Source of the DNA: Flavobacterium sp. CFS9
GTDB lineage: Bacteria; Bacteroidota; Bacteroidia; Flavobacteriales; Flavobacteriaceae
Direction: 5' to 3'
Length of the DNA: 64,000 bases
Assembly (NCBI RefSeq): GCF_041154745.1
Contig: NZ_AP031573.1
Span: 4,464,001-4,528,000 of the forward strand
Position numbers and translations under genes: made by a program. The notes beneath the pieces were generated by a model. The model worked only from the letters and a program-made list of their open reading frames with translations, had not been told where the DNA came from and made no database searches. Positions 5,615 through 35,405 of the stretch are shown here, piece by piece; within the stretch, counting starts at the first letter, position 1; every line of letters starts with the position of its first letter.

Positions 5615-5923
5615 TTAAAGGAAGAACGATCGCAGGATCGTGGCCGCAACAATCAGAAAGATGCACGCCCCGAACCAGCTGGCGGCGGTTTTGCTGGTGT
5701 CGGGGTCACCGCTGCTGAATTTGTTGTACACCTTAACTCCCCCAATCAGCCCGACCACCGCCCCTATGGCGTAGATCAGCTGGGTCGCAGGATCAAAATA
5801 AGAGGTCACCATCTGGGTGGCCTCCGTAATCCCGGCAGTGCCGTTTCCCTGCGCGGCTGCGCCAATGCCTGCCAGCACCATCAGGGATGCCGAAAGCAGT
5901 TTTTTTTTTCTCTGTTTTTCCAT
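5615..5923 (-). CDS. traE: Conjugative transposon protein TraE (DUF4134), VirB2-like
   Basis: This 102-residue protein has an N-terminal hydrophobic signal segment (about residues 8-24, ending AAAQ) and two membrane spans around a short loop (FDPATQLIYAIGAVVGLIGGVKVYNKF and ASWFGACIFLIVAATIL), the form of a VirB2 pilin-like subunit. The loop GDPDTSKTAASWFG is typical of DUF4134/TraE. The frame is open 25 codons further upstream, but the ATG at 5923 gives the clean signal sequence. It is normally preceded directly by traD; here about 6.5 kb of foreign cargo lies between. The transfer genes downstream of the cargo must therefore be transcribed from the 5924-6070 stretch or by read-through. Confidence 0.9.
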   Translation of the reverse strand: MEKQRKKKLLSASLMVLAGIGAAAQGNGTAGITEATQMVTSYFDPATQLIYAIGAVVGLIGGVKVYNKFSSGDPDTSKTAASWFGACIFLIVAATILRSFFL

Positions 5924-6072
5924 AACCAAACACTTTTGAATTGTCGTTTCCCGCCGAGTGCGGGCTTTGGAGCAAAGGTGTTGTAGAAACAGAGGCACTG
6001 CTGAAAACTGAAAGCGAAAGGAACTCTTTGGCTTTTATTGGCTATTTAAATGGCTATTTTGGATATGAAAAA

Positions 6073-6109
6073 GAAAGCCCTCTTTCCTAGCGTAGGAAAG
6101 AGGGCTTTC
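6073..6109 (-). terminator. Intrinsic terminator of the 6.1-12.2 kb operon
   Basis: A perfect 17-bp inverted repeat (GAAAGCCCTCTTTCCTA and its complement) encloses a 3-base loop. On the minus strand it is followed by TTTTTCAT, forming a Rho-independent terminator 24 bases after the methyltransferase stop codon. On the plus strand it is followed by a T-run after a short gap. It separates the cargo operon from traE. Confidence 0.85.
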
Positions 6110-6133
6110 AAAATATGTTTTTTTCTTAGCTTC

Positions 6134-8008
6134 TCAATTCAAAATCTGTTCATCGCATAGATGTACATCATAAAAGTCTTCAAGAAAGTGATCAACCACA
6201 TGTTTATCCTGTTCATTAATCAAGAAATCAATCTGCTCTTCCGAAAAATTAGGAATTCCAAAGTTCTTGATATAGTTGCCGTTCAATGAATAATAATTTG
6301 AAGTATAAGGCTTGCTTGTAGTTTTGATATAGTACCAAAATATTCGCGATTCCATTATCTTTTTTATAAGAAGCATTTCTTCCTCGGAATGGCCTATAAT
6401 TGCCTGACCATTGTAGAAAAGCAGGTCATTATCATTGCTTATGATGTAACTTGGAACTATATCGGAAAACTTTGGAAAAAACAGCTTATTGCCCATTTTC
6501 TCCAAAGACTGGGTTCTTCCAAATGCAAACCACTTCTCATATTTTCCATAGCCTTTGTCCCTGGTCGCTAAAATACTCTTTTTATTCAGCAGATAGTTAT
6601 AAGCCATGGGAAAACACTCTTTTAAAAAGTCTTCCTCCATTATCTTTGGCCTGTCGTCATCACTATAGGGAAAAAGAACCTTTTCGATGGCTTGGTCAAT
6701 ATCAACGCTTCTGCTCAGTTTATTCGAATTGAAGATATCCCTGCAGATTCCCTTTTCAATTGGATACAGATTTCCATTCTGCAGGTAGTAGAAGTCCTCG
6801 TCTTCAGCCACCGGCCTAAATATATAAAGGTCATTCTTAAGCGTAGCGATTCCGTGCCTTGTTTTGTAGATCTGCCCAAGCGGCCTTCCCGTCGCTTCTA
6901 TCTTGGAAATGAGCTCGTTGTTATTCAAATTCCATCCGCTCCTTGCGTTTAGGGAGTTATAATTTATTCTAATGTAATCAGTTCTAAGTATTGGCATTTC
7001 TCTCTCAATAGACTTATAGTATTCAACAAATTCTTGCTGCCTATTTTCGAGAAAGCATATGCAGGTATATGTACTTTTCGGCTGGAATATCTGAAGCGTG
7101 CCAAAGTCAATAATCTTCACAGCCACATTATTTTCCTCAAAATAGGATCTTAGTGCCCTGCCGTTTAGGCTCTTGAAAAAAGAATTCATTGTAATATAGC
7201 CCAAGATTCCGTTCGGTGCCAAGCTTTCAAAACCAATTTGGAAAAATGGAATATACAGATCGGGGTTACCGGATGCGCATACGGCCCAATTCTGCAGGTT
7301 CTCCTTTACAGCATCTTCCAAGTTTCGGCCGCGAACGTAAGGCGGATTTCCCACAATTATTTGAAATCCTTCAAAGTTTGGATACACATTATTCCAGTCA
7401 AAAATCAAAGTGTCACCCTGATGTATATTAAAATGGAATTCTTCTATGTCTTCTCCTTCCGATATTGCTAAAAGGCTTAAAAGCAATTTGCTTCTCGTAA
7501 CCGAGTATTCCTGAATATCAAGTCCAAAAATCTGATTTTGGTATATATGCTCGTAACTATTTTGTGTTCTCCTTTTCAATTCTTTTGCTGAAGTGTAAAG
7601 AAAACCTCCGCAACCGCATGAAATGTCCGAAATTTTAATATTCGCCAACTGTCCTTCTATCTCATGTATCGACTGCTCAACAATATAATCACGAATATCT
7701 ACAGGAGTATAGATGGCGCCATTAACAATTCTATCCGATGGAGAAATAACAAACTCGAAAAGCTCGATTAGCTTCTCGATTTCAAAAGTATGAAGTTCGC
7801 CGTTAATGATCTCAATGAATTTACCTAGCGCATCCCATTGCTCTTGTTGCTCTTGTGTAATAGAATACTCTATCAAAAAACGGTTCTGACGAACTGTTAA
7901 TTGATTAATTACTAAAAAAGCAGACACGATTAGCCTATCAACTTTTAGCGGATCTGTTGAATAACTTTTTAAGTATCTGAATATATTTCTCATGTAAAAA
8001 TTGGACAA
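6134..8008 (-). CDS. N6-adenine DNA methyltransferase (Eco57I/TaqI class) with C-terminal recognition region
   Basis: This 624-residue protein carries the S-adenosylmethionine loop DISCGCGG at residues 128-135 and the catalytic NPPY motif at 221-224 (IIVGNPPYVRGR), in the order of gamma-class N6-adenine methyltransferases. The segment after NPPY (NPDLYIPFFQIGFESLAPNG) and the C-terminal 300 residues resemble the TaqI-like target-recognition region of Eco57I-type enzymes. No endonuclease domain is visible in it. It is the last gene of a four-gene operon and overlaps the preceding gene by 19 bases. It could mark self DNA for an associated restriction activity or be the effector itself. Its codons are AT-rich compared with the tra genes. 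The target sequence cannot be read from the protein. Confidence 0.88.
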   Translation of the reverse strand: MSNFYMRNIFRYLKSYSTDPLKVDRLIVSAFLVINQLTVRQNRFLIEYSITQEQQEQWDALGKFIEIINGELHTFEIEKLIELFEFVISPSDRIVNGAIYTPVDIRDYIVEQSIHEIEGQLANIKISDISCGCGGFLYTSAKELKRRTQNSYEHIYQNQIFGLDIQEYSVTRSKLLLSLLAISEGEDIEEFHFNIHQGDTLIFDWNNVYPNFEGFQIIVGNPPYVRGRNLEDAVKENLQNWAVCASGNPDLYIPFFQIGFESLAPNGILGYITMNSFFKSLNGRALRSYFEENNVAVKIIDFGTLQIFQPKSTYTCICFLENRQQEFVEYYKSIEREMPILRTDYIRINYNSLNARSGWNLNNNELISKIEATGRPLGQIYKTRHGIATLKNDLYIFRPVAEDEDFYYLQNGNLYPIEKGICRDIFNSNKLSRSVDIDQAIEKVLFPYSDDDRPKIMEEDFLKECFPMAYNYLLNKKSILATRDKGYGKYEKWFAFGRTQSLEKMGNKLFFPKFSDIVPSYIISNDNDLLFYNGQAIIGHSEEEMLLIKKIMESRIFWYYIKTTSKPYTSNYYSLNGNYIKNFGIPNFSEEQIDFLINEQDKHVVDHFLEDFYDVHLCDEQILN

Positions 8009-8751
8009 ATATCGTTAATAGGGCTCCACGTAATATTATCTGGAGCAAAAGGTTTCCACTGGTTCGCTAACGTATGAAAATAAGGTTTCCATATTGCATG
8101 CTGATAATTCTCTTGCAGTTTTACGTATTCCCTTTCGGCTTTCAGACTTTCAAATGCTAATGGGAAAAAATTAGAGGTAAGAAAGCCGATTCCTAATATA
8201 AAATCAATTGGTTTATGCATAATCCTTGGAGTATCAATATAGAATAAATCTCCTAAATTCGGATTATTGGATTTTGTTGGGTTGAAATTATACTGCAAAT
8301 GATAAATTGGATGAGGCTCTTTAGTGTCTGCTTGGCCTATATGTTTGTCGATGTGAAAACCAAAATGATAAGTTCTTAGACCTACGCCTTTTATCATCAC
8401 ATTGTATGCTAGCTCAATAAATGGATCACGAAATGTATTCCAATCTTCTATTTTGGCACGCAATTTCATATTTAATATAACTTCACCTTTAGTAATATCT
8501 TGAGGTTTTACATGGCTTAAAGTATCTAAGGGCATTTTAAAATTCACGATATCATATCCCCAAATGTTTTCATTTGTTGACCCATCTTTTAGAACTGGAA
8601 TAAATTCCTTATTTTGAAGTTGTGAAATTACAGATTCCAGGGCGGAGGTGTTCACATCTCCACCAACAACCCTCGTCAGTACCTGGCTTAATTGTCTTAG
8701 ATCTTTAGCCCTTTCATTTCTGAAACTCATATTTCTATTGTTTACGGCCAT
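7990..8751 (-). CDS. Protein of unknown function in the GHKL-receiver-methyltransferase operon
   Basis: This 253-residue soluble protein has no domain I can name. It has no signal peptide and no clear membrane span. A histidine-rich middle (YHFGFHIDKHIG, then HPIYHLQYNFN at about residues 145-170) followed by a D-TPRIMHKPIDFILGIGFLTSNFF stretch looks like a conserved core rather than random sequence. The histidines might bind metal, but that is a guess. It starts 6 bases after the receiver gene and overlaps the methyltransferase start by 19 bases, so all are made together. Being the only component without a known role, it is the obvious candidate for an effector or adaptor. Confidence 0.7.
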   Translation of the reverse strand: MAVNNRNMSFRNERAKDLRQLSQVLTRVVGGDVNTSALESVISQLQNKEFIPVLKDGSTNENIWGYDIVNFKMPLDTLSHVKPQDITKGEVILNMKLRAKIEDWNTFRDPFIELAYNVMIKGVGLRTYHFGFHIDKHIGQADTKEPHPIYHLQYNFNPTKSNNPNLGDLFYIDTPRIMHKPIDFILGIGFLTSNFFPLAFESLKAEREYVKLQENYQHAIWKPYFHTLANQWKPFAPDNITWSPINDICPIFT

Positions 8752-8757
8752 ATTTTA

Positions 8758-9861
8758 TCAACTATTTTTACGTTCTTCAATCCTATCCGTTTCTGAATAA
8801 TGCGGTTCAATTCCTTTTTCTATACCTAATCTTTCGACTACAGCATAAAAAGAAATATACTTCGGTTCCTGCCATGCTTTCAATTCATGTGATAATTTAA
8901 CTCTAAATCCCTCTAAAGGGTCTAAAGGACATTTTGTAGCTTCACAAATGGTCCAAAATTCACTGCTGGTATTTAGGTCAATAGGTTTAGCAGCTACTAA
9001 ACCTCCTATCATAAGCACTTCAGATAGAATCGCAACTCTTTCTTCAGCTTTTAAAAATGAAAAGTTTTTGCCCGAAATGTCTTTCAATTTAGAATTTACC
9101 AGATCAGCCCACCATCTATTCCATCCGCTAGAAAAAACACCTTTATATTTGCAGTCATCGAATTTTGACAATAATTCCGCCCAGCTGTCTCCACTTGCTT
9201 TTATGTCAACTCCAAATCTGGCCGCTAGAATAGTTTCTTTGATTAGAGGATTGGTAGAATGAAACAAAGTTTTTACGGTAAAGTGCGCATAATCATAAGC
9301 TACATTAATATCCTGACTGTAAAAACGCTCAAATATCCGCTGGTCCAGATTTTTTAAATCCTCCCTTTGGAAAACACTGCTCAAATTATCTGCATCAAAG
9401 GGCAATGTTTTATAATCCTCAGCCAAAGCTTTTAATTTTATTGAAAATCTATCATAATCAGGCTTTTCGGATTTCCTAAATGTGTAATCGAATAGGTCGT
9501 GACTTGTCTTATCTGATTTGTAGGTTTCCTTTATATTATCCAAAGTCGAACAAAGAACGATCGGAAAAGAAGGAATCTCCCGCCTAGCGCATATCGCTCG
9601 CAACTCTGCGCTTATGGAGATGGCACTATACTTTAATCTGTTAGGCCCTTCTCCATCCAATCTCAAGTCAATCAATAATCCATCAAAATTCTCGTCTACT
9701 ATTTTGCTCTTAATGAGTTCTTCCAAATCGGAAAAATTCATTCCTTTAGTAATTAAAAGCTGATGAACTTCTACCAATCCAGTGTCATTAAAACCATGAA
9801 TTAAAGAAGTTATCGACACATCATTTTCATCGTCAACGTATATATATTTTGGCCTAGACAT
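8758..9861 (-). CDS. Receiver-domain protein with non-classical C-terminal output
   Basis: The 367-residue protein opens with a receiver-like fold: acidic pair D10-D11 (IYVDDEND), the phospho-acceptor position D65 (LLIDLRLDG), the Ser/Thr position at S105-T106 (IVLCST) and a lysine at K130 (TFRKSEK). All catalytic positions of a response regulator are therefore kept, although the sequence is otherwise divergent. The last 220 residues are helical, lack a recognisable helix-turn-helix and match no output domain I know. It lies 13 bases after the histidine-kinase-like gene and 6 bases before the unknown gene. The likely role is to take a phosphoryl group from the upstream protein and pass a signal within a defence complex instead of regulating transcription. 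Confidence 0.75.
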   Translation of the reverse strand: MSRPKYIYVDDENDVSITSLIHGFNDTGLVEVHQLLITKGMNFSDLEELIKSKIVDENFDGLLIDLRLDGEGPNRLKYSAISISAELRAICARREIPSFPIVLCSTLDNIKETYKSDKTSHDLFDYTFRKSEKPDYDRFSIKLKALAEDYKTLPFDADNLSSVFQREDLKNLDQRIFERFYSQDINVAYDYAHFTVKTLFHSTNPLIKETILAARFGVDIKASGDSWAELLSKFDDCKYKGVFSSGWNRWWADLVNSKLKDISGKNFSFLKAEERVAILSEVLMIGGLVAAKPIDLNTSSEFWTICEATKCPLDPLEGFRVKLSHELKAWQEPKYISFYAVVERLGIEKGIEPHYSETDRIEERKNS

Positions 9862-9874
9862 AATTTATATTTTA

Positions 9875-12175
9875 TTATTTTTTTGGAATTTCTATTCTAA
9901 AAGTTGTTGTATATCCATCCGTGGGAGAAGACACATAAATTTCTCCATTGTAAAATTCGATAATATCCCTAACGATCTTCAAACCTAATCCCGTTCCAGT
10001 AAGAGCTGTTGCATCATCGGCTGTATGGTTCGAAGCTGTAGATGTAGTGTAAAAAGGCATAAATATTAATTCCTCAGTTCCTTTGATAATGCCATTCCCA
10101 TTATCTGAAAATTCAAGAAAAACGTATTTATCGTCCTTACCGCACCTGATAAATATCTTGCCATCAGCTGTTGATCTTTTTATAGCTTTTTTTGAGTTGG
10201 TATACAAATTAAATAATATGGAAGCCCATTCTGATGGATGCATAGGGATGGTAAACAAATCATACCCCTCATATTTAGTAGGAACCAATTCAATGGATGC
10301 TCTCTTCAAATCATTCGTTATCACGATTTCAAAGTTTCTAACCACATCTCTTAGTTCAATAGGTTCCAATTCACGATGAACATTTCTTGAGATTGTCTTA
10401 TCGAAATATGAAGTGTAAGCGCTAAATGATCTGACATTTGTTTCCAACAATTCAGTTCTTTCATATACTTCCTTATAATCTTTAACGGCATTTTTCAAGA
10501 AACGGATATCAGCGTCAAATCCCGGTAAAAATCGTTGAACTTCATGTACAAATTCACCGATGACTAAACCAAGTCCGGCAAGAATTCTTAGCATATTATT
10601 CTCATCGATCAACTCCTGTTTTTGACTCTTTTCTTCTTCCCTTGCCTGTTTCAAATCAAGAATAATCTGATTGGCTTCATCACTAGTTATTCTGCCAGAA
10701 ATCTTTTGTTCCGGATTTTTATCATCTGCATCAGGATCTTTAAACAGGGCTTCAATTTTCTGTATCGCAGTATCCACCTTGTCAGACGGATCTTCCTTTT
10801 TGTATCCCTTTTGACCAGCGGTCACCTTTCTTCCTCTCAATGCGTGAATTTTCATTACGGCACTTGTTAAAGAACGATAAACAAAATTTACTAATTCATT
10901 TAAGTACTCGTTCTCGACTAAACCTTCACGACTTGAGGTTTCTTCAAAATTTTCACCTAGATCGTTGAGTTCTACAAATCCAAAGAAGTTTCTGTTTGGA
11001 TGTTGAGCCAAGATTATATTTCTATTATTTGATTTATCTAGACCTAGCCAGTCATCGCTTTCCTCGCCATATGGCAGTACTCGAAAACCATTGCGGTATA
11101 ATCTTATCCCGCCTTTTTCGTATAAGAGCTCCTTTATGAATGTGAATGTTCCAGGTGCAAAAAGCTTAGCATCAAATAGAAAATAATATGCTTTGAAATG
11201 AACCCCTTTTATTAGATTGAAAGGCGTTGTCGTATCGTCTTTATCTTTTCCACCATTTCCAATTAAATAAATTTCCTTCGGAAAACTCAGTTTATCACTT
11301 TTTAATGACCAGTGCCCCTGTCCATCTTCACTGACATGGCCCTCAATTTCAGCCAAGGCATGTGAAAAGATTGCTTTCTCTTCATCTACGATTGCAGTTT
11401 TAAATCCATTGTCGTTTCGATAATAATTACTTTTGAAGCCTTCATCTATAGAGTTTTCTTTTTCCTCTTCTTTCTTTTTAGATAAAGGGAAGGGCTGCAG
11501 TAATTCAGAAGTATAACGATAAACCCTTTTAATCATATTGTCTGACCATCCTTCTCTAAGTTCTTCGATAATTAACGTAGTGCCATAATCTCTGACTTTC
11601 GGAACTAAATCAACCGAATTGGATATAGCAAGTAAGTTTTTATCAGTAGCGAACTCTTCCCAATTTACAATAACTTTCAAAGCTTCTTGTGAATGTTTTG
11701 TTTGTGTTATGATTGTCAGTTTTTTTCCAAGTCGCTGAGTAGCAAATCTACCAATACCCTTCTTACCTGCTTTTTGGCGTTTGTATTTATCAGAAACCGG
11801 ATTATGAATTTTATCAGAAGATGACAATCTCATAAAACCGTTAACCAGCTGTTCCCGGTTCATTCCATGTCCATTGTCCTCTATAGTTAATGTCCCACCT
11901 TTATTCCAAGCATTTTCAAACATTAAATCAACTATCGTTGCATCCGCATCATAAGCATTTTTTATAAGCTCTGAAACTGCTGTTTCTTGCTTTCCAACCA
12001 GTTCTTTACCTAATCTGTTTATTATCCCTGCATCAACTGAAAATCTTACTACAGACTCATCTAAAGTAGCAATTTCATTAGATAAAGAAATAATTAAATT
12101 ATTATCCGAGTTTGGTTTCGCTATTTCTTCAGATAATCTTTTTTTAATTTCCGAAATTTTATTTACATTATCCAT
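9875..12175 (-). CDS. Double GHKL protein: MORC/Hsp90-like ATPase joined to histidine kinase
   Basis: The 766-residue protein holds two GHKL ATP-binding modules. The first resembles Hsp90/MORC/MutL: N box with ELIKNAYDAD at residues 69-78, EDNGHGM at 99-105 and GKKGIGRFA at 137-145. The second is of histidine-kinase type: a possible phospho-accepting helix with GEFVHEV (His at about 541), then an N box (NLYTNSKKAI), DNGNG, a Phe-containing lid (MPFYTTST) and GTGLGLKIV at about 726. No membrane span or periplasmic sensor is seen, so it should sense something inside the cell. It is the first gene of the four-gene operon, with the receiver protein 13 bases downstream as its likely partner. MORC-like ATPases are known near restriction-modification genes, which supports a DNA-sensing role; this is inference. 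Confidence 0.8.
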   Translation of the reverse strand: MDNVNKISEIKKRLSEEIAKPNSDNNLIISLSNEIATLDESVVRFSVDAGIINRLGKELVGKQETAVSELIKNAYDADATIVDLMFENAWNKGGTLTIEDNGHGMNREQLVNGFMRLSSSDKIHNPVSDKYKRQKAGKKGIGRFATQRLGKKLTIITQTKHSQEALKVIVNWEEFATDKNLLAISNSVDLVPKVRDYGTTLIIEELREGWSDNMIKRVYRYTSELLQPFPLSKKKEEEKENSIDEGFKSNYYRNDNGFKTAIVDEEKAIFSHALAEIEGHVSEDGQGHWSLKSDKLSFPKEIYLIGNGGKDKDDTTTPFNLIKGVHFKAYYFLFDAKLFAPGTFTFIKELLYEKGGIRLYRNGFRVLPYGEESDDWLGLDKSNNRNIILAQHPNRNFFGFVELNDLGENFEETSSREGLVENEYLNELVNFVYRSLTSAVMKIHALRGRKVTAGQKGYKKEDPSDKVDTAIQKIEALFKDPDADDKNPEQKISGRITSDEANQIILDLKQAREEEKSQKQELIDENNMLRILAGLGLVIGEFVHEVQRFLPGFDADIRFLKNAVKDYKEVYERTELLETNVRSFSAYTSYFDKTISRNVHRELEPIELRDVVRNFEIVITNDLKRASIELVPTKYEGYDLFTIPMHPSEWASILFNLYTNSKKAIKRSTADGKIFIRCGKDDKYVFLEFSDNGNGIIKGTEELIFMPFYTTSTASNHTADDATALTGTGLGLKIVRDIIEFYNGEIYVSSPTDGYTTTFRIEIPKK

Positions 12176-12453
12176 GAATTATTGTCCATTGTTATTGATT
12201 AAATCTGTGGATGCAACTCGCAGTTGGTCTGCATGCTCAGCTAACGCATTTAAGCAAGGGTATATCAACGGTGCGCCAACTACAAATCTCTGCTTCATTT
12301 CTAAAGTTTTTATGCTAACCACTTACTACTCACATTTTTCTCCGCAAGCATTAATTTTAATCTATTAATTGCTTTTTTTGTCATTAAAATTGCATATCGC
12401 GTAAAGATATTGATTTTTTTTTTCTTGCACCACTCAGTAACTTTTATTGCAGC
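12176..12453 (-). other. AT-rich leader and probable promoter region of the cargo operon
   Basis: No convincing gene lies here. It must hold the promoter of the four-gene cargo operon because traD upstream ends in its own terminator. A weak -7-like match (TATCTTTA read on the minus strand at 12403-12410) is present, without a clear -33 partner. Confidence 0.35.
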
Positions 12454-12484
12454 AAAAAAGGGAGCCCGCCTTACGCAAACTCCC
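12454..12484 (-). terminator. Terminator overlapping the traD stop codon
   Basis: On the minus strand GGGAG pairs with CTCCC around a 15-base loop containing the traD stop, followed directly by six T residues. The stem is short, so it may be partial. It insulates the cargo operon from traA-traC-traD transcription. Confidence 0.55.
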
Positions 12485-13103
12485 TAATATCGAAATCATT
12501 TGGATCACTTTTTTCTTCCGTTAAAGTAGATTTTTTATTTATGGAAGAAAGCCTCCCGTCCAAGAGCTCTGCCATTTTTCGAGAAGCATCTTCCATGGAA
12601 TTTTCCAGTAGGTTGAATAATTCAGTTCCTTGTATTTTCTGAATCAACGCTGCTGCTGTTTCCTTTTGGGATGGCTCCAGGCTTTCCTCCTGCAGCATCA
12701 TCCCCACTGAGCTTAATTCTTCGAAGGTAACCCCTTGGGCAAAACCGCTATTCCCTATGGAAATTCCAAAACTATTCCGCTCTTCCTCCTCATCCTCCAA
12801 ATCAGGCAAATAATCATTTGCATCATCGAGCTTGACCTCCCAATCTGTTTGGTGTTGTTCCCCGCTGATTTCTGGATCAAAATTATGCGCTTCATCTCTT
12901 GCTGCCTTAATATGGCAGCCATTGGCATCGTGCGGCGTTAGAAGGCTCTTGAATTCCCTAGTAAGTCCCATTAGATCCGGAAGATTCCTGCTTCGTTTAT
13001 CAAATCCTGTTTTTTTTTCAGCATTCGATATCCTTCCCTGAAATTTATCATGCAAAAGCAGCATTATGATGATAAGCAGACATATCACAATTAAAGCTTC
13101 CAT
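12471..13103 (-). CDS. traD: Conjugal transfer protein TraD
   Basis: This 210-residue protein has an N-terminal membrane segment (MEALIVICLLIIIMLLLHDKF), then a long polar, acidic region and a helical C-terminus (about residues 125-190, with GVTFEELSSVGMML). Proteins of this form between the DUF3408 gene and traE are annotated TraD in flavobacterial ICEs. It is unrelated to the coupling protein called TraD in F plasmids. It is 2 bases downstream of traC. The normal neighbour traE is displaced by the 6.1-12.2 kb cargo. Role unknown; identification rests on position and topology. Confidence 0.75.
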   Translation of the reverse strand: MEALIVICLLIIIMLLLHDKFQGRISNAEKKTGFDKRSRNLPDLMGLTREFKSLLTPHDANGCHIKAARDEAHNFDPEISGEQHQTDWEVKLDDANDYLPDLEDEEEERNSFGISIGNSGFAQGVTFEELSSVGMMLQEESLEPSQKETAAALIQKIQGTELFNLLENSMEDASRKMAELLDGRLSSINKKSTLTEEKSDPNDFDIREFA

Positions 13104-28957: not shown

Positions 28958-30634
28958 ATGGTAAAATATTTACTGGTTATCTCTTTGTGCTTCGGTTATA
29001 ATGTTAATGCACAAAAAACTGTTCCCAGAATTCCGGACTCCTTGAAAAGCGCAGATTTCGACTATCTTTTCGACTGTATCGAAAAACAGGATATTGACTC
29101 CGCAAAAAGAGAGATCTTCCTTAAGGCTTTTCTGGATAAGGCCCGATCAGAGAAAAACTGGGAAGAGCTTTCAAATGCCTATAAAAATTATGTCCATTAT
29201 GCTCCTGCAGCGCAAAAGCTCATCTATGCAGACAGTATGGTCATGGCGGCCAAAAAATCAAATGACAATTCAATCATCGGTTCGGCTTATCTGTCAAGAG
29301 GCGTGGCCTACTATGGGCAGAAACGTCTTAGAAAAGCTATGGACAGCTATCTGATTGCAGATCAGTATATATCCAAAACAGACGACGGCTACCTCATCCA
29401 TAAGACCAAATACCAGATTGCGCAGATTAAATTCTATCTCGGATATTATCATGAAGCCATCTCGCTATTTAACCAGTGCACAGAATATTTTAAGGATAAT
29501 GATGACAGGGCTTACCTGAATTCCCTTCATTCGCTGGGAGCCTGCTACAAAATGGTCGGAAACCATGGTATGAGTACCGAAATCAACAGGCTGGGAATTG
29601 CAGAGGGAATAAGAAGAGGAAACCTGGACATGCAGCATTACTTTGTGCAGTCCGAGGGAATAAACCAATGTCTGATCCACAACTACGAGTCAGCGCTCCA
29701 TAAATTGCAGTCCTCGCTGTCCGGTATCCGTTCCAATAGCGATTTTTCAAATGAAATGGTAAGCAATTTTTACATCGGCAAATGCTTTTGGGGCCTCAAT
29801 GAGAAGGAAAAGGCAATGTCATACTTCAAAAAAGTGGATCTTGGTTTTTCGCAGCATGCATATATGAGGCCTGATCTACGGCAGGCTTATGAATATATGA
29901 TCTCCTATTACAGGGACAGGAAGATGATTGAGGCGCAGCTCCATTATGTGGAACGCCTGCTGGCGGTGGATAAGAAGCTTCATATTACCTATACCTATCT
30001 TCAGGGAAAAATCAGAAAGGAATATGAAACCCAGGATCTTTTGAGGGAGCAGCAGATTTTAAGGCATTCCGTTGACAGCCAAAAAAATAACGACCGAATA
30101 TCCATATCGGTTATCTGCATACTTTTTCTCCTTATCTTGTTAGGGATAATATGGTTCTTCAAAAGCAGAAGCGAATCGCGAAAAAAATATGAGGAGCTGC
30201 TGCAGAAAATTGAAATTGAAACCAGAGCCAAGTCCGAGAAAACCGACGAGCTCGATTTTGCGATAAGCAGCGATGTCGAGCAGGCGGTGCTGCAGTCCTT
30301 GAAAAAATTTGAGGTGGGCAGGAAATTTCTGGAAAAAGGTTTGAATCTTACCAAACTGGCGGGCCATTTCAATACCAACACAAAATATCTGTCGGTCATC
30401 ATCGCGCGTCACAGAAATCAAAACTTCAGCCAGTACATTAACTCACTTAAGATAGATTATATAGCCAAAAGGATCAGAAATGAGAAAACACTGCAGAATT
30501 ACACCCATGATGCCCTTGCTCTGGAAGCGGGCTTCAGCACTACAAGACGTTTTGTAAAAGCTTTTGTAAGCTGCACGGGGATAACTCCTAAATACTTCAT
30601 CGAAGAATTGAGGAAAGATGAAAATCTTCCTTGA
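28958..30634 (+). CDS. TPR-AraC hybrid membrane regulator
   Basis: The 558-residue protein has a signal peptide (residues 1-18), a periplasmic helical region with tetratricopeptide-like repeats (about residues 70-350, e.g. SAYLSRGVAYYGQKRLRKAMDSY in parts, YNEKEKAMSYFKK-like segments), one membrane span (about residues 385-405: ISVICILFLLILLGIIWFF) and a cytoplasmic C-terminus with an AraC-type HTH (LNLTKLAGHFNTNTKYLSVII, then ALEAGFSTTRRFVKAFVSCTGITPKYF in parts). This one-protein signalling form is typical of Bacteroidota. It may control the SusCD cluster or its divergent neighbour; nothing in the sequence settles this. Confidence 0.88.
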   Translation: MVKYLLVISLCFGYNVNAQKTVPRIPDSLKSADFDYLFDCIEKQDIDSAKREIFLKAFLDKARSEKNWEELSNAYKNYVHYAPAAQKLIYADSMVMAAKKSNDNSIIGSAYLSRGVAYYGQKRLRKAMDSYLIADQYISKTDDGYLIHKTKYQIAQIKFYLGYYHEAISLFNQCTEYFKDNDDRAYLNSLHSLGACYKMVGNHGMSTEINRLGIAEGIRRGNLDMQHYFVQSEGINQCLIHNYESALHKLQSSLSGIRSNSDFSNEMVSNFYIGKCFWGLNEKEKAMSYFKKVDLGFSQHAYMRPDLRQAYEYMISYYRDRKMIEAQLHYVERLLAVDKKLHITYTYLQGKIRKEYETQDLLREQQILRHSVDSQKNNDRISISVICILFLLILLGIIWFFKSRSESRKKYEELLQKIEIETRAKSEKTDELDFAISSDVEQAVLQSLKKFEVGRKFLEKGLNLTKLAGHFNTNTKYLSVIIARHRNQNFSQYINSLKIDYIAKRIRNEKTLQNYTHDALALEAGFSTTRRFVKAFVSCTGITPKYFIEELRKDENLP

Positions 30635-30734
30635 TGGTAAATTACTGTATAAAAGACATTGCTATTATTTTTCGCTAACAACAAGCATATCAATTTAATT
30701 TTTCCGATATGCATCGGTTAAAAGAGCAATTAAC

Positions 30735-31793
30735 CTAGACTTTTTCTAACTCTGCATCTATTTTCAAAATTTTATTTAATAAATAATTTCCAAATTCATT
30801 GGTTAATTTCAGTTTATCAGCACCACGCATTAAGCTGCCAAAGCTGTTTATTCCACTGGGAGTTATATTTAATAAATTATTTTCTAGAAAATAATTTTTC
30901 TGGTTTGTAACAGTTACATTTTGGCTTGCCCATTCTCGGCCATAATTAGGTGTTAAGTTCTCACCAACAAAATAATGCGGCCATCTATCATTTTCATTTC
31001 CTGTATTTCTAAGTTCCGAATTGACCCTATATATTGAAAGAATATTTAAATGTCCCACCGCATAGCAAATCAGCACATCGCCTTCCTTTACTCCATTTGG
31101 TTTTAATTTTGAAAAATGGAGATTGCTGTCTACCTCGTCAAATTTTGCGGATAAAGGGATTAGATCATTTGAAACACCAATAGGCTTTAGCCAAAAAGTT
31201 GCATTTGTCTTTATTCCAAGATAATTCTCTCTCTCTTCAAATAATAAGGATAAATTGAGTTTGATTGGGTTTTTCTCGATTACGGGTATGGGCGTTTCCA
31301 TAATTTTTGCCAAACATTCATCAATTTTATGTTCGTTGAAGCACTTGAATTTTATTTTGTCAATTATTCCATTTTTAATCTTATCTATTTCTATTGCATC
31401 TTTAATTAAAATCCCCCACTCATTGTTAATCCGAAGGCCGCTGTCAGTAAAATTAGCAGAAGTTATGATTGCACTTGCAGAGTTATCGGCATACTCGCCT
31501 ATAAATATTTTCCCGTGAAAGAAATTATCAATGAAGATTTCAAACTCAACTTTCAAGGAATTGAAAATCCCATAAAGCTCTTTGAAAAAATGGATTTTAG
31601 AATACTGATCTTTGTCAAATGGCTTCAACGTAGTTACAATTGTGACCTTCCGAAGACAAACCAGCTCTTTGAAGTTTATGAGTTCTATGTTCTTTGTGAT
31701 ATATGGACTTATTATTGTGGCACTATTGGCCTCCTTAAAAATTTGATTTACTTGATGCAAATGATTCTGCCTGGTAAGGTTATTTATTATCAT
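30735..31793 (-). CDS. PLD-family nuclease joined to EVE/PUA-like domain
   Basis: In this 352-residue protein the N-terminal 180 residues are phospholipase D-like: SATIISPYITKN at 24-35 and the catalytic half FFHGKIFIGE (His93, Lys95) followed by AIITSANFTDSGL (Ser112, Asn114), as in NgoFVII-type nucleases that work as dimers. The C-terminal half (about 195-330) has the look of an EVE/PUA-like base-reading domain: NATFWLKPIG, EGDVLICYAVG, ILSIYRV and WPHYFVGENLTP. Nuclease plus EVE-like module suggests restriction of DNA carrying modified bases (type IV-like). The gene is AT-rich and is the last of three same-strand island genes. Confidence 0.72.
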   Translation of the reverse strand: MIINNLTRQNHLHQVNQIFKEANSATIISPYITKNIELINFKELVCLRKVTIVTTLKPFDKDQYSKIHFFKELYGIFNSLKVEFEIFIDNFFHGKIFIGEYADNSASAIITSANFTDSGLRINNEWGILIKDAIEIDKIKNGIIDKIKFKCFNEHKIDECLAKIMETPIPVIEKNPIKLNLSLLFEERENYLGIKTNATFWLKPIGVSNDLIPLSAKFDEVDSNLHFSKLKPNGVKEGDVLICYAVGHLNILSIYRVNSELRNTGNENDRWPHYFVGENLTPNYGREWASQNVTVTNQKNYFLENNLLNITPSGINSFGSLMRGADKLKLTNEFGNYLLNKILKIDAELEKV

Positions 31794-31878
31794 TTTATTT
31801 ACTCTTTTTATTTCTCAGATTATTTAAATATTTTTTCAATGATAATATTCATCGCTTCTACAATTTACTGATTATTGG

Positions 31879-32862
31879 CTACCTTATTCTCTCTAAGTTG
31901 GTCATATATTTTTTACAGTATCTACCGGTCTCGTTATCACGCAGTGCTCTGTTTAGTGCATATCCTCCTCCAATAATAACTCCTAAAGCGCCTAATATTT
32001 CTTTGACATATTCAGGAGAGGTTGCAGCTGGATTTTTGATTAGCATATAGGCGGCAAAAGGTATTGAAGCAAGCCCTAACCCTGTCAAAAGTACCTGTCT
32101 GCTGAATTCTGAATATATATTATTGTAATTATTTATGAAATCTTGTTCACTGTAGCCTTCACCAATTTTCTCTTGGATATTTTGTAGTTCTGCGTTGAAT
32201 GCCCGTAAGTAATCTCTATTCTTTTCACGAAACTCTATTAGTCGTTCAAAAGGTACATCTGCTAGATTCTTTGGAATAAGAAGATTGATGATTCCTTTGG
32301 CAAATTTGGTAGTCCTATTTAAGCTCGGAGTTGTAAAACGGGAGTAATTGGTAAAATTGTCATACCTGTTATTATCGGTAATTATCGCCGCAGATTCTAA
32401 ATGGGCAATTTCTTTTGCCAGATAGGTCATAAATAGAAATGCGAGCTCCTCAGGCAGTGTCAGTCCGTTCTCGGTTTGGCGTCCAATGTTATTTCGCAGA
32501 CAATAATCCGCCCACGCATCGGAAAATTTTTCGTGGTAAACATTGAAATTCCAGTTTTCAGGATTTTGCCATTTTCTGATCAAGTTCGCATTATTGAATA
32601 AAAGGCTCCTCTCGTGCCTATTGTCAAAGATTTTATTTACTTCTTCAATTGCTTTCAATGTTGCTCTATATCCTACATCCGCTCCAGGACTATAAGGTCT
32701 TATTAAATCAGTTTCATCTATTATTCTTGCATAATTGTCGCTCACTTGACCGCGACGGCTGTAAGGAATAATAGGCCTGAAATTTTCGAAATATAATAAT
32801 GAAAATTTAAGCCAAGCATCAGTTGGCGGCTCAAAAGTCGGATAATAAATAAGTGGCTCCAT
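31879..32862 (-). CDS. Unknown protein, DUF6236-like
   Basis: The 327-residue protein begins MEPLIYYPTFEPPTDAWLKF and continues LLYFENFRPIIPY, a start that I associate with the DUF6236 family; that link is from memory and not certain. Residues 265-305 are hydrophobic and Gly-rich (FAAYMLIKNPAAT, GALGVIIGGGYAL), perhaps one or two membrane helices near the C-terminus. It is 85 bases upstream of the PLD gene and 116 bases downstream of the next unknown gene. A membrane-linked toxin or sensor partner of the PLD protein is possible but unproven. Confidence 0.6.
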   Translation of the reverse strand: MEPLIYYPTFEPPTDAWLKFSLLYFENFRPIIPYSRRGQVSDNYARIIDETDLIRPYSPGADVGYRATLKAIEEVNKIFDNRHERSLLFNNANLIRKWQNPENWNFNVYHEKFSDAWADYCLRNNIGRQTENGLTLPEELAFLFMTYLAKEIAHLESAAIITDNNRYDNFTNYSRFTTPSLNRTTKFAKGIINLLIPKNLADVPFERLIEFREKNRDYLRAFNAELQNIQEKIGEGYSEQDFINNYNNIYSEFSRQVLLTGLGLASIPFAAYMLIKNPAATSPEYVKEILGALGVIIGGGYALNRALRDNETGRYCKKYMTNLERIR

Positions 32863-32978
32863 TATTTAACAGTTTTATAATTTAATTTTACAATTCCTTT
32901 CTTCCATATTTCTACAAAGCACTATTAATTTTTAAAGCGCTTGTTCCGCTGATTTTCGCAATTTTAACTTACACAAAT

Positions 32979-34130
32979 CTAAATTGAAAGATAGCTGATT
33001 CCTTCGATAATCTCTTTCGATTCCTCACCCTCAAATCTGATATTTATCGCATCGCTTTCTCTAGCGTCCAACAAGAACTCTGTCAAATAGCGCGGTACAT
33101 TTTTACTGTATAAATTTTCTTCTCTAGAATTCAATTTTGTAATGAAATTTTCAAATTCGTTTAACGCATTAAATACTTTATTCAAAATTTCAATATCTCT
33201 TTGTTGATTATCATAGGATGCAAATTCGCCTGAATAAAAATAATCTGCGTATTTTTCTAAAAAAACCACGGATAATTTGGCTGGAGAGACTTCAAAATAA
33301 TGAAGCAGATATTTTAAATATCTAATAAAGGACTCTCTAAGCTGAAATGCAATAAACTCTTTATAGGCATCACTTTGCCCTTCATTGTATTCGATAGATT
33401 TTAAAAAGGATTCCAAAGCTTCCTGAACCTTTACTCCTATTACATCTGCAATTATTTCAGGAGTCCTGTCTTTCCCTCCAAAGAAAAAAAAGAAATAATT
33501 TACTTCGCAGCGTTTCATGTCAAATTTCCCTATTCTGAAATTATGTTCTTTATTTTTTTTGAAAGACACCTTTGGAGTCTGCGTTTTTGCCTGCTTATCA
33601 ATATCGGCAACTGAAACAAACTTTGTTTTTCGAATTAAATTCCCTGCATTAGCTTCTAAATCCCCCATATCTTCGATCAAAGGAAAAGCATATACAACCG
33701 CATTGCCCTTATCACCTCCTATGCCATTGGCAAGACTGCGAAGTACAAAATGCTGATTCGTGCTCGTCGAATTTATCTTAAATTTAAAATGATCATGTGG
33801 GGTCTTGCTGAATTCACTTTTAGGATCTGGGCTGGAAGTTTGCAGGTCTCCTTTTTTATATTGTATAAAAAGCAGATGCCCGCCGCTGCCCGATTTTATT
33901 CTTACATCAAATCCGCCACCTGCATTTCCAGTTGGATCATCCTTCCCTTCCGTTGTAATGTGGAACCCTCCAGCAGTAGACTTTGGAACATTAAAAAAAG
34001 GTAATCGATGTGCTGGTCTCCAGTAGTCCCATAACGGAATATCTTTTAAAAACCAAAAATAACTGTCGGCAAGGTTAAGAAGTTCGTGCGTTATGTTTAG
34101 CTCAAGTGTTTTTTCGTGAAATTCCATCAT
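32979..34130 (-). CDS. Unknown protein with possible PD-(D/E)XK-like N-terminus
   Basis: The 383-residue protein has an N-terminal domain with GFHITTEGKDD, GGGFDVRIKSGSGGHLLFIQYKKG (split into Asp at about 75 and Gln-x-Lys at about 91-93). The order Glu, Asp, Gln-x-Lys resembles divergent PD-(D/E)XK nucleases of the Cap4 type, but I cannot confirm it. The rest is helical (about residues 200-350). A run of five Phe (NYFFFFFGGKD) lies at about residue 215. It is the first of three AT-rich island genes on the minus strand. If it is a nuclease, the island would hold two different nucleases. Confidence 0.6.
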   Translation of the reverse strand: MMEFHEKTLELNITHELLNLADSYFWFLKDIPLWDYWRPAHRLPFFNVPKSTAGGFHITTEGKDDPTGNAGGGFDVRIKSGSGGHLLFIQYKKGDLQTSSPDPKSEFSKTPHDHFKFKINSTSTNQHFVLRSLANGIGGDKGNAVVYAFPLIEDMGDLEANAGNLIRKTKFVSVADIDKQAKTQTPKVSFKKNKEHNFRIGKFDMKRCEVNYFFFFFGGKDRTPEIIADVIGVKVQEALESFLKSIEYNEGQSDAYKEFIAFQLRESFIRYLKYLLHYFEVSPAKLSVVFLEKYADYFYSGEFASYDNQQRDIEILNKVFNALNEFENFITKLNSREENLYSKNVPRYLTEFLLDARESDAINIRFEGEESKEIIEGISYLSI

Positions 34131-34437
34131 TAATTATTATTTTTTTTATTTTAAAGGACATTATTCCCTATCTCAATTATTAATTGGACAAACCTAGAAT
34201 ACTATTTGAATATATATTTACGGTTTTCCGCAAATCGAGCAATTCTATCTACAAAATAATCGTTTTATGATATAATTTGTGACAGTACAAATACCTGTTT
34301 TACTAAATTATAAGCATAAAAAAAGATGCTTATTAAGCATCCTTAGGTATTTTGTTTAAATGTTATTTAATTAACTTTTTCGTTTATCTTCTAAAGATCA
34401 AATTTATTAGTTCCTAGCCTTAAAAATTTAAAGAAAA
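34131..34437. other. AT-rich intergenic stretch, likely promoter of the island genes
   Basis: No gene seen. TAGGTTTG read on the minus strand (34189-34196) fits the -7 consensus 60 bases before the 34130 start, but no well-spaced -33 element was found. Confidence 0.35.
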
Positions 34438-34731
34438 TTATTTCGTAAGAGCTTTCTTAAATATATTTATATCTGAATTATCAATTGAATCATAAACTTT
34501 TGCAAAATCTGTTAAAGAAAATCCCATCGATTCAACTATTAAAAATAATGTTAAAGAATTTGGTATAGATTTACCATTAAAAGTATCAGAAACAGTAGCT
34601 TTTCTTATATACGCAGTCAATGCAATTTTATTATAGCTTTGAGCGACAGGTGCTTCACCAGTGCTTTCAAGTAACCTGCGTAAGCTAATTGCAATTCGTA
34701 ATTTGATATTTTCGTCTGTTTCTTTTTTCAC
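34438..34731 (-). CDS. XRE-like helix-turn-helix regulator
   Basis: The 97-residue protein carries a helix-turn-helix-like segment (LRIAISLRRLLESTG, YNKIALTAYIRKATVSDTFNG, KSIPNSLTLFLIVESMG) with the sequence feel of XRE/lambda-repressor proteins. It is AT-rich like the island beside it and lies 307 bases upstream of the first island gene on the same strand. A perfect inverted repeat lies 26 bases before its start, so it probably represses itself and perhaps the neighbouring unit. No protease or ligand domain. Confidence 0.7.
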   Translation of the reverse strand: MKKETDENIKLRIAISLRRLLESTGEAPVAQSYNKIALTAYIRKATVSDTFNGKSIPNSLTLFLIVESMGFSLTDFAKVYDSIDNSDINIFKKALTK

Positions 34732-34757
34732 AATGCAATTAACATTAACTAAAATAA

Positions 34758-34787
34758 TTTATCGGTACGTTTTGGCGTACCGATAAA
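34758..34787. promoter_or_regulatory. Perfect 12-bp inverted repeat, probable operator
   Basis: TTTATCGGTACG and CGTACCGATAAA flank TTTTGG. It lies 26 bases upstream of the HTH gene start and just before a plus-strand TATATTTG box (34794-34801), so binding could control transcription in both directions. The HTH protein at 34438 is the natural candidate to bind it. There is no T-run, so it is not a terminator. Confidence 0.65.
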
Positions 34788-34913
34788 ATTTATTATATTT
34801 GGCTCGATACTAGTATTTAAGTATCCTTTTTTTATTATTTTTGCGATTCTTCATTAAAAAATATTTGAAGCATTCGCTTTGAATCTCGTTATCGAAAACT
34901 GGCGTTTAAATAA

Positions 34914-34969
34914 CCACGAGATGATAAGTAAGATGCTCACGCTTTTGGCGTGGGCTCACTTATTCGTGG
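34914..34969. repeat. Long imperfect hairpin of unknown type
   Basis: The inner stem GCTCACGC/GCGTGGGC (8 bp, one G-T pair, TTTTG loop) continues through ATAAGT/ACTTAT to CCACG/CGTGG. It lies in a 600-base stretch between the HTH gene and susC without a convincing gene. It could be a structured RNA, a mobile-element end or a recombination site; none is proven. Confidence 0.45.
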
Positions 34970-35405
34970 TAAGGTACCGCCAGTACCCCGGTAGCGGATT
35001 TGTTGAGTTTCCACGCCTTTTTTATGCTTATATCTCAACTTCTCAAAGCAAATTCCTTAGATTTAAAAGAAACGCACTCATTTGTTTAACCTTTAAAAAG
35101 GTCAGCTATGATGTAAAATTGTTCTGTTTTTGTAATGCCTGGCCCGAACCGGTATTGACATTGAATTAGTTTAAGGGCCGGGTCATTGCCCAGCAGATTC
35201 AGCATATGCCTAGACACAGCCTGGAAAATCACAATCTAGTTTTTGAAATCTTAATAAATACGCCAATGAAATAACCATTTTACAGCATAATTTGAAGCTC
35301 GGCATCAGATGCCGCTCCAAAAAAGCAGTCCCCTACCGCAGCGACTAAACTAGTGTAGAGGACCTTAGCTAATCAAAACCAAGTTCAACTAACCAATCCA
35401 ATATT
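34970..35405. other. Gene-free leader upstream of the susC homologue
   Basis: A 96-codon frame across 34879-35169 looks non-coding because it translates the hairpin and has no family pattern. A weak stem (GTCCCCTAC with GTAGAGGAC, 35328-35372) precedes the susC start and might act in the leader RNA. No exact promoter box was found. Confidence 0.3.

What the first reader, a model, noticed from the sequence alone, without database searches (positions are those of the whole stretch)
6073..12484. Four-gene candidate defence system: double GHKL kinase, receiver, unknown protein, N6-methyltransferase
Seen: four minus-strand genes spaced 13 bases, 6 bases and a 19-base overlap, AT-rich, bounded by a terminator at each side, placed between traD and traE. 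The first protein carries an MORC/Hsp90-like ATPase and a histidine-kinase module in one chain, the second keeps all receiver residues (D10-D11, D65, T106, K130) but has no DNA-binding output, and the last is an NPPY methyltransferase without a visible endonuclease. Known: MORC-like GHKL ATPases occur near restriction-modification genes, and phosphorelay-controlled defence exists (Detocs). Inference: a phosphorelay that senses foreign DNA or its methylation state and triggers the unknown 253-residue protein or the receiver output domain. I know no named system with this combination.
Basis: partly seen in the sequence, partly recalled or inferred. Interest (0 to 1): 0.82.

Follow-up and report, generated by a model that had tools for sequence, protein, structure and literature searches.

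The report
Phosphorelay module partnered with DNA modification
A mobile element carries a compact set of genes in which a kinase, a signalling partner and an unknown protein travel together and pair with different DNA-marking enzymes in different bacteria, which looks like a new, switchable form of restriction against foreign DNA.

Summary
The four genes are real and conserved as a unit: all 20 named loci found with the receiver protein carry kinase (HK), receiver (RR), unknown protein (U) and methyltransferase (MT) in that order, although 2 of the 20 have broken genes. A wider survey shows that HK-RR-U is the core. RR-U stands beside the same MT clade in 30 loci, a distant Eco57I-type methyltransferase in 6, and in one genome the phosphorothioation genes sspBCD without a methyltransferase. 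In related elements, the same slot beside traE held defence genes in all 8 loci scanned, of 14 fetched. HK is a full-length relative of the HEF_HK kinases published in 2021 beside restriction-modification genes; RR and U show no significant relation to that system. U has no significant Pfam or fold match and keeps an invariant His/Asp/Arg set. Best reading: a modification-partnered defence module in which a MORC-like kinase checks DNA, and phosphotransfer through RR controls U, a predicted effector. Defence is supported by position and partners; signal, direction and U's activity are inference. New variant of a known, functionally untested kind.

The parts
9875..12175 (-). HK: MORC-like GHKL ATPase (64-184) plus histidine-kinase core (H544; HATPase_c 651-765)
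8758..9861 (-). RR: receiver domain (about 2-158) plus a conserved C-terminal domain without known fold
7990..8751 (-). U: protein without significant family or fold match, predicted effector, invariant HxD, PxxH and PR residues
6134..8008 (-). MT: Eco57I-type N6-adenine DNA methyltransferase, NPPY at 221
6073..6109 (-). terminator-like hairpin after MT
12459..12485 (-). terminator-like hairpin at the end of the preceding 210-aa border gene
5615..5998 (-). traE (DUF4134), low-coordinate border of the cargo slot
12471..13103 (-). 210-aa border gene of the cargo slot, no Pfam match

Best explanation
It is a candidate restriction-like defence module carried as cargo of a conjugative element. Its constant core is HK-RR-U. 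A separate DNA modification unit, here the m6A methyltransferase MT, marks the host's own DNA. Proposed working: the N-terminal MORC-like ATPase of HK, which resembles the N-terminus of BbrUII/HgiDII-type restriction enzymes, engages DNA or the modification machinery. When DNA lacks the mark, or modification is disturbed, HK autophosphorylates at H544 and passes phosphate to D65 of RR, and the RR C-terminal domain changes its hold on U, the effector, perhaps a metal-dependent hydrolase or nuclease acting on the invader or the cell. Shown: gene set, conservation, kept catalytic residues, partner exchange, position in a defence slot. Inferred: phosphotransfer, the signal and its direction, U's activity.
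For: Conserved unit: 20 of 20 loci, each flanking ORF shared with at most one other locus. Partner exchange: same MT clade in 30 loci (HK seen in 29), distant Eco57I-type clade in 6, sspBCD in 1. H544 in 34 of 34 kinases; D11, D65, S105, K130 in 34 of 34 receivers; H133, D135, H151, R176 in 34 of 34 U proteins. In the related HEF_HK loci examined, an HNH_2 nuclease gene directly follows the receiver in 2 of 4, where U stands here. Distances over 26 class I loci: RR C-terminal part with U partial r 0.61 (5-95% of 70% subsamples 0.50-0.69), kinase C-terminal half with receiver 0.37, U with MT 0.05 and -0.02 although adjacent. In L019 RR and U differ together from the window (REC 49, RR C-terminal 47, U 33% identity) while HK and MT stay at 69-80%. 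Slot: 10 of 10 large cargo proteins, from 8 of 14 related elements, match PADLOC models. Neighbours elsewhere: AbiE genes in L049 and L062, a Piwi gene near L052.
Against: No experiment. U has no recognisable nuclease motif or fold and its model is moderate (mean pLDDT 78.9); H147 is lost in 2 and H179 in 1 of 34. The RR C-terminal domain has no known fold. The phosphorothioation pairing rests on one genome. The correlations use non-independent pairs; receiver with RR C-terminal part is only 0.19 and HK N-terminal half with RR C-terminal part is 0.38, which a simple chain does not predict. In the other 2 of 4 HEF_HK loci no nuclease was identified after the receiver. The sister system has no tested function either. 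Cargo proteins for one search were chosen by size.
Confidence: 0.6

Rival explanations
1. Epigenetic regulation: the kinase-receiver pair and U regulate transcription or replication of the element or the host in response to methylation, without restricting anything.
For: No endonuclease family recognised in U or RR; PMC8011034 proposes signalling that controls R-M systems, directly or indirectly.
Against: No known DNA-binding output in RR; the unit sits in unshared surroundings, in a slot otherwise filled with defence genes, and exchanges its modification partner.
Confidence: 0.15
2. Guard and abortive infection: MT or SspBCD is the guarded partner; when an invader inhibits it, HK-RR-U kills or stalls the cell through U acting on the host and not on foreign DNA.
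For: Partner exchange; U is uncorrelated with MT, so U need not read a DNA site; kinase-receiver logic is used in Detocs (glossary in PMC11249213).
Against: Nothing separates it from the main reading by sequence; the HNH_2 gene in the sister loci favours DNA as the target.
Confidence: 0.2
3. Element-serving module: MT protects the conjugative element from host restriction and the trio is an addiction or entry-control device.
For: Location inside a conjugative element; overlapping genes.
Against: The same set is found outside recognised tra slots, for example on a plasmid annotated as non-mobilizable, and with sspBCD.
Confidence: 0.05

Closest known systems
HEF_HK (PF19191) / Response_reg_2 (PF19192) two-component-like pairs beside R-M genes (PMC8011034)
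   Same: Kinase with HATPase_c_3 and HATPase_c next to a divergent receiver protein and a DNA methyltransferase; kinases homologous over most of their length (hhalign prob 99.9, E 2.8e-36, 699 columns)
   Different: Our HK has no PF19191 match and our RR no PF19192 match; RR and U show no significant profile relation to Response_reg_2 proteins (best: RR prob 2.7, E 0.017, 60 columns); partner here is an m6A methyltransferase or sspBCD; U stands where 2 of 4 such loci have HNH_2
Ssp phosphorothioation systems (SspBCD with SspE or SspFGH; PMC8092258)
   Same: In L051/L053 HK-RR-U directly follows sspBCD; that paper reports 2,211 of 2,678 sspBCD (83.9% as printed) without SspFGH or SspE
   Different: No sspBCD among the window's four genes; trio not compared with SspE or SspFGH except through PADLOC for the window's proteins (none listed)
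Acinetobacter baumannii global clone 2 Ssp without SspE, with a nearby two-component system (PMC12421847, passages)
   Same: The authors noted a histidine-kinase two-component system in the region and suggested a possible new Ssp variant; in L122 (unnamed genus, family of the Psychrobacter genome G753) sspBCD converges on a kinase related to ours over 696 columns plus a 639-aa receiver-like protein
   Different: The 639-aa protein is not detectably our RR, no U was found there, and whether L122 matches the paper's genes was not tested
MORC and paraMORC GHKL ATPases of R-M systems (PMC2292703, passages)
   Same: N-terminal GHKL module near DNA methyltransferases
   Different: Here fused to a histidine kinase and paired with a receiver
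Detocs, defensive two-component system
   Same: Three-gene kinase-receiver defence (glossary in PMC11249213)
   Different: Described there with an ATP-cleaving PNP effector; no DNA modification partner is mentioned in that passage
DefensePredictor unvalidated predictions with HATPase and REC domains (PMC13092281, figure legend only)
   Same: HATPase and REC domains predicted as defensive
   Different: Gene composition not visible in the passages read

Membership tests
HEF_HK / Response_reg_2 system | kinase has HEF_HK domain PF19191 | tested here: not met
   no match at E up to 1; a HEF_HK kinase as control (L045) matches at 8.9e-28
HEF_HK / Response_reg_2 system | receiver has PF19192 | tested here: not met
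   (0 of 43 members, E up to 1); control L045 at 5.4e-34
HEF_HK / Response_reg_2 system | HATPase_c_3 plus HATPase_c in one kinase, adjacent to a receiver gene and near an R-M gene | tested here: met
paraMORC ATPases | N-terminal GHKL ATPase with intact motifs | tested here: met
   HATPase_c_3 1.6e-23; N73, D100, G102, G104 in 34 of 34
paraMORC ATPases | S5 domain after the GHKL domain | not tested
   a conserved RNGFRVxPYG stretch resembles it from recall only
Type II restriction-modification | DNA methyltransferase | tested here: met
   Eco57I 2.1e-29; NPPY in 27 of 27 class I MTs; activity not tested
Type II restriction-modification | cognate restriction endonuclease | tested here: inconclusive
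   none recognised; HK residues 45-154 match a REase_II model at 1.7e-10 and 44-213 the N-terminus of BbrUII/HgiDII at 9.9e-21, far below its cut-off; U has no known fold
Two-component system | phospho-acceptor His, receiver Asp, Lys and Ser/Thr | tested here: met
Two-component system | phosphotransfer from HK to RR | not testable with these tools
   needs purified proteins
Ssp system | sspBCD among the system's genes | tested here: not met
   absent from the window's four genes; met in L053
PADLOC-DB 2.0 systems | models for the trio | tested here: not met
   RR and U none at E up to 1; HK only partial matches to REase_II, PDC-M43B, MzaB, TmtA, PDC-M38B

The most novel reading that the evidence does not exclude
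HK-RR-U is a plug-in restriction engine: one phosphorelay that can be attached to chemically different self marks (N6-methyladenine from two distant methyltransferase clades, and DNA phosphorothioate) and that executes foreign DNA or the cell through U, a new effector enzyme family. Together with the HEF_HK pairs and the Ssp-linked kinase of L122 it would define a broad class of phosphorelay-gated restriction.
Probability: 0.35. Interest if true: 0.92.

Novelty: new variant of a known kind. Interest (0 to 1): 0.77.

Why it matters
If right, restriction can be gated by histidine-aspartate phosphotransfer, and one effector core can serve several unrelated DNA marks. It offers a candidate answer to a gap in print: PMC8092258 found most sspBCD loci without a known effector, and PMC12421847 found Ssp without SspE near a two-component system. 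It would also give the 2021 HEF_HK pairs a testable function and names a protein family (U) with a conserved putative active site.

Tried and rejected

RR as Response_reg_2: not supported by hmmscan or hhalign. The Response_reg_2 profile had only 4 sequences and the best hhalign value (prob 2.7, E 0.017, receiver region) leaves a distant link open. U as a piece of the longer Response_reg_2 proteins: no support.

U as an endonuclease matched to MT's target: disfavoured, because U and MT distances show no partial correlation. Near-identical DNA on plasmids: none. U in phage records: none. U in plasmid records: one, on a Hymenobacter plasmid. Viral contigs: one locus by RR, none by U.

Dropped or incomplete rows: L013 and L086 are weak U hits without HK or RR and were not counted; G858 (stops inside) was not opened. 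L023 and L029 carry broken genes and were left out of the alignments. L063 has RR in two ORFs and its contig ends before HK; L066 has only RR and U at a contig end. L091's kinase frame ends early, so its C-terminal ATPase residues are missing, but it is among the 34 sets. L010 duplicates L024, L068 duplicates L033 and G1033 is the L052 plasmid. L024 and L025 score alike against the window; L025 was dropped.

Full report
Observation. The window lies in a 5.37 Mb single-contig genome. At 6134-12175 on the minus strand lie four genes, HK, RR, U and MT, as described: spacing 13, 6 and a 19-base overlap, hairpins at both borders, low GC. HK carries HATPase_c_3 and HATPase_c. MT is an Eco57I-type N6-adenine methyltransferase. 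RR has no match in Pfam, PADLOC or NCBIfam, and U has none but a chance-level POTRA_2 (0.2).

Conservation. A profile of RR found 20 distinct loci in the named genome collection (165 stretches matched a pattern, 22 encoded relatives). All 20 match HK, RR, U and MT in that order; in 2 of the 20 (L023, L029) some genes are broken into several ORFs. Apart from these four, a flanking ORF is shared with at most one other locus, so the unit is these genes. The titles name mostly Bacteroidota, plus a Psychrobacter and MAGs labelled Staphylococcus and Vallitalea (MAG labels unchecked). The unit is rare: U profiles or U itself matched in 5 of 199 relatives, one of them without RR, 2 of 395 genomes of the phylum, 8 of 299 of the genus, 8 of 199 of the family of the Psychrobacter genome, two of these with stops, and 4 of 120 of the Hymenobacter genus.

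The core is three genes. A broader U profile led to further loci. Class I, same MT clade directly downstream: the window, the 20 loci, L049, L050, L052, L062, L063, L064, L065, L081 and L082, 30 in all, with HK seen in 29. Class II: L034, L083, L085, L090 and L091 have a distant Eco57I-type methyltransferase upstream of HK, and L084 has it convergent after U, 6 in all (21-28% identity to the class I enzymes over parts). Class III: in G511, of the window's genus, SspB (3.5e-106), SspC (E printed as 0) and SspD (9.2e-85) are followed, with overlapping genes, by HK, RR and U, without a methyltransferase in between. L066 is cut off by its contig end. So a DNA modification unit is adjacent in 37 of 38 loci that hold RR and U, the other being incomplete.

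Co-variation. Pairwise distances of 26 class I loci were compared by partial correlation (an earlier run without distance correction on 27 loci gave the same order for the main links). The strongest link between different genes is the RR C-terminal part with U (0.61; subsamples 0.50-0.69). HK's C-terminal half tracks the receiver (0.37). HK's N-terminal half tracks MT's C-terminal half (0.29) although these are not adjacent genes, and also RR's C-terminal part (0.38). U does not track MT (0.05, -0.02) although the genes overlap. Against a simple chain: receiver and RR C-terminal part give only 0.19. Pairs are not independent, so this is support, not proof. In L019 RR and U together belong to another branch while HK and MT stay close to the window's.

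Position. traE homologues were sought in 121 genomes of the genus (38 with a match). Of the 25 loci returned, the window's included, three show the 210-aa border gene within about 0.25 kb of traE, an empty slot (L098, L100, L110), and a fourth at 1.0 kb (L104). I fetched the stretch beside traE in 14 other elements; 13 have the border gene there with cargo in between. I scanned 10 large cargo proteins from 8 of these 14, chosen by size: all 10 match PADLOC models, namely type IIG restriction enzymes (L134, L138), an Argonaute and QatA (L128), Gabija (L129, L132), IetS (L127) and candidate systems PDC-M62 (L135) and PDC-M65 (L139). The window's four genes fill the same slot. Elsewhere the unit lies directly beside AbiEi/AbiEii (L049, L062) and, on a Hymenobacter plasmid, near a Piwi gene and another methyltransferase.

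Relation to known systems. PMC8011034 (abstract, introduction, results and discussion read, not the methods) described HEF_HK kinases with Response_reg_2 receivers, 91.6% linked, beside R-M genes, with HATPase_c_3 + HEF_HK + HATPase_c as main architecture and HNH_2 as best-represented endonuclease domain. I fetched four such loci (L045-L048, found with PF19192). In L045 Pfam confirms C5 methyltransferase, HEF_HK kinase and Response_reg_2 receiver in that order; genes of similar length precede the kinases of the other three and were not scanned. An HNH_2 gene follows the receiver in L046 and L047; in L045 and L048 the next gene is on the other strand and was not scanned. Their kinases align with ours over 699 columns (E 2.8e-36), but ours lacks the HEF_HK match, and RR and U show no significant relation to their receivers. 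So ours is a sister system, not a member. Iyer et al. 2008 (PMC2292703, passages) placed MORC-like GHKL proteins in R-M operons. PMC12421847 (passages) reports Ssp without SspE near a two-component system in A. baumannii and speculates on a new Ssp variant; among 175 genomes of the genus of G947, 5 had an SspC match. Of these 5, L122 has a kinase related to ours over 696 columns (E 2.3e-34) and a 639-aa protein with receiver-like motifs by eye, convergent with sspBCD; L126 has broken kinase pieces near a broken sspBCD; the other 3 show no such kinase in the 20 kb fetched, which speaks against a regular link there. PMC8092258, PMC12839542, PMC13092281 and PMC11249213 were seen as passages only. 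Ten paper searches listed nothing that I recognised as HK-RR-U; listings are capped and most subscription papers are not held.

Mechanism. Most likely the modification unit marks self DNA and the trio is the restricting side: the MORC-like part of HK reads DNA or modification status, phosphate goes from H544 to D65, and RR releases or activates U. U's place matches that of HNH_2 in two sister loci, and its invariant His/Asp/Arg set suggests a metal-dependent enzyme; this is inference. The sign (phosphorylation activates or restrains U) cannot be read from sequence.

Verdict. Real, conserved, probably defensive, new in its core protein U and in its partner exchange, with a published but functionally untested relative.

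Noticed in passing
window 5998-12471; L127-L140: The interval between the 210-aa border gene and traE is a cargo hotspot of this family of conjugative elements; relatives carry Gabija, IetS, QatA with Argonaute, type IIG enzymes and candidate systems there.
   Followed up: partly
L053:2125-12310: sspB-sspC-sspD without sspE, continued by HK-RR-U, next to a YhcG-type nuclease gene (PDC-S02) and relaxase, MobC-like and TraG-like genes.
   Followed up: yes
L122:2714-12148: sspBCD converging on a MORC-type histidine kinase and a 639-aa receiver-like protein without Pfam match; perhaps of the kind that PMC12421847 mentions.
   Followed up: partly
L126:13839-16973: Pieces of a broken MORC-type kinase near a broken sspBCD cluster, with an integrase gene near by.
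   Followed up: no
L091:2195-2842: HNH_2 nuclease gene just upstream of the clade b methyltransferase, HK, RR and U, so one locus holds both U and the nuclease type of the sister system.
   Followed up: no
L028:1842-6690: ResIII helicase and N6_N4 methyltransferase genes, type III R-M-like, immediately upstream of the four-gene unit.
   Followed up: no
window 30001-35000: Second low-GC stretch in the window (down to 0.296), perhaps further cargo.
   Followed up: no
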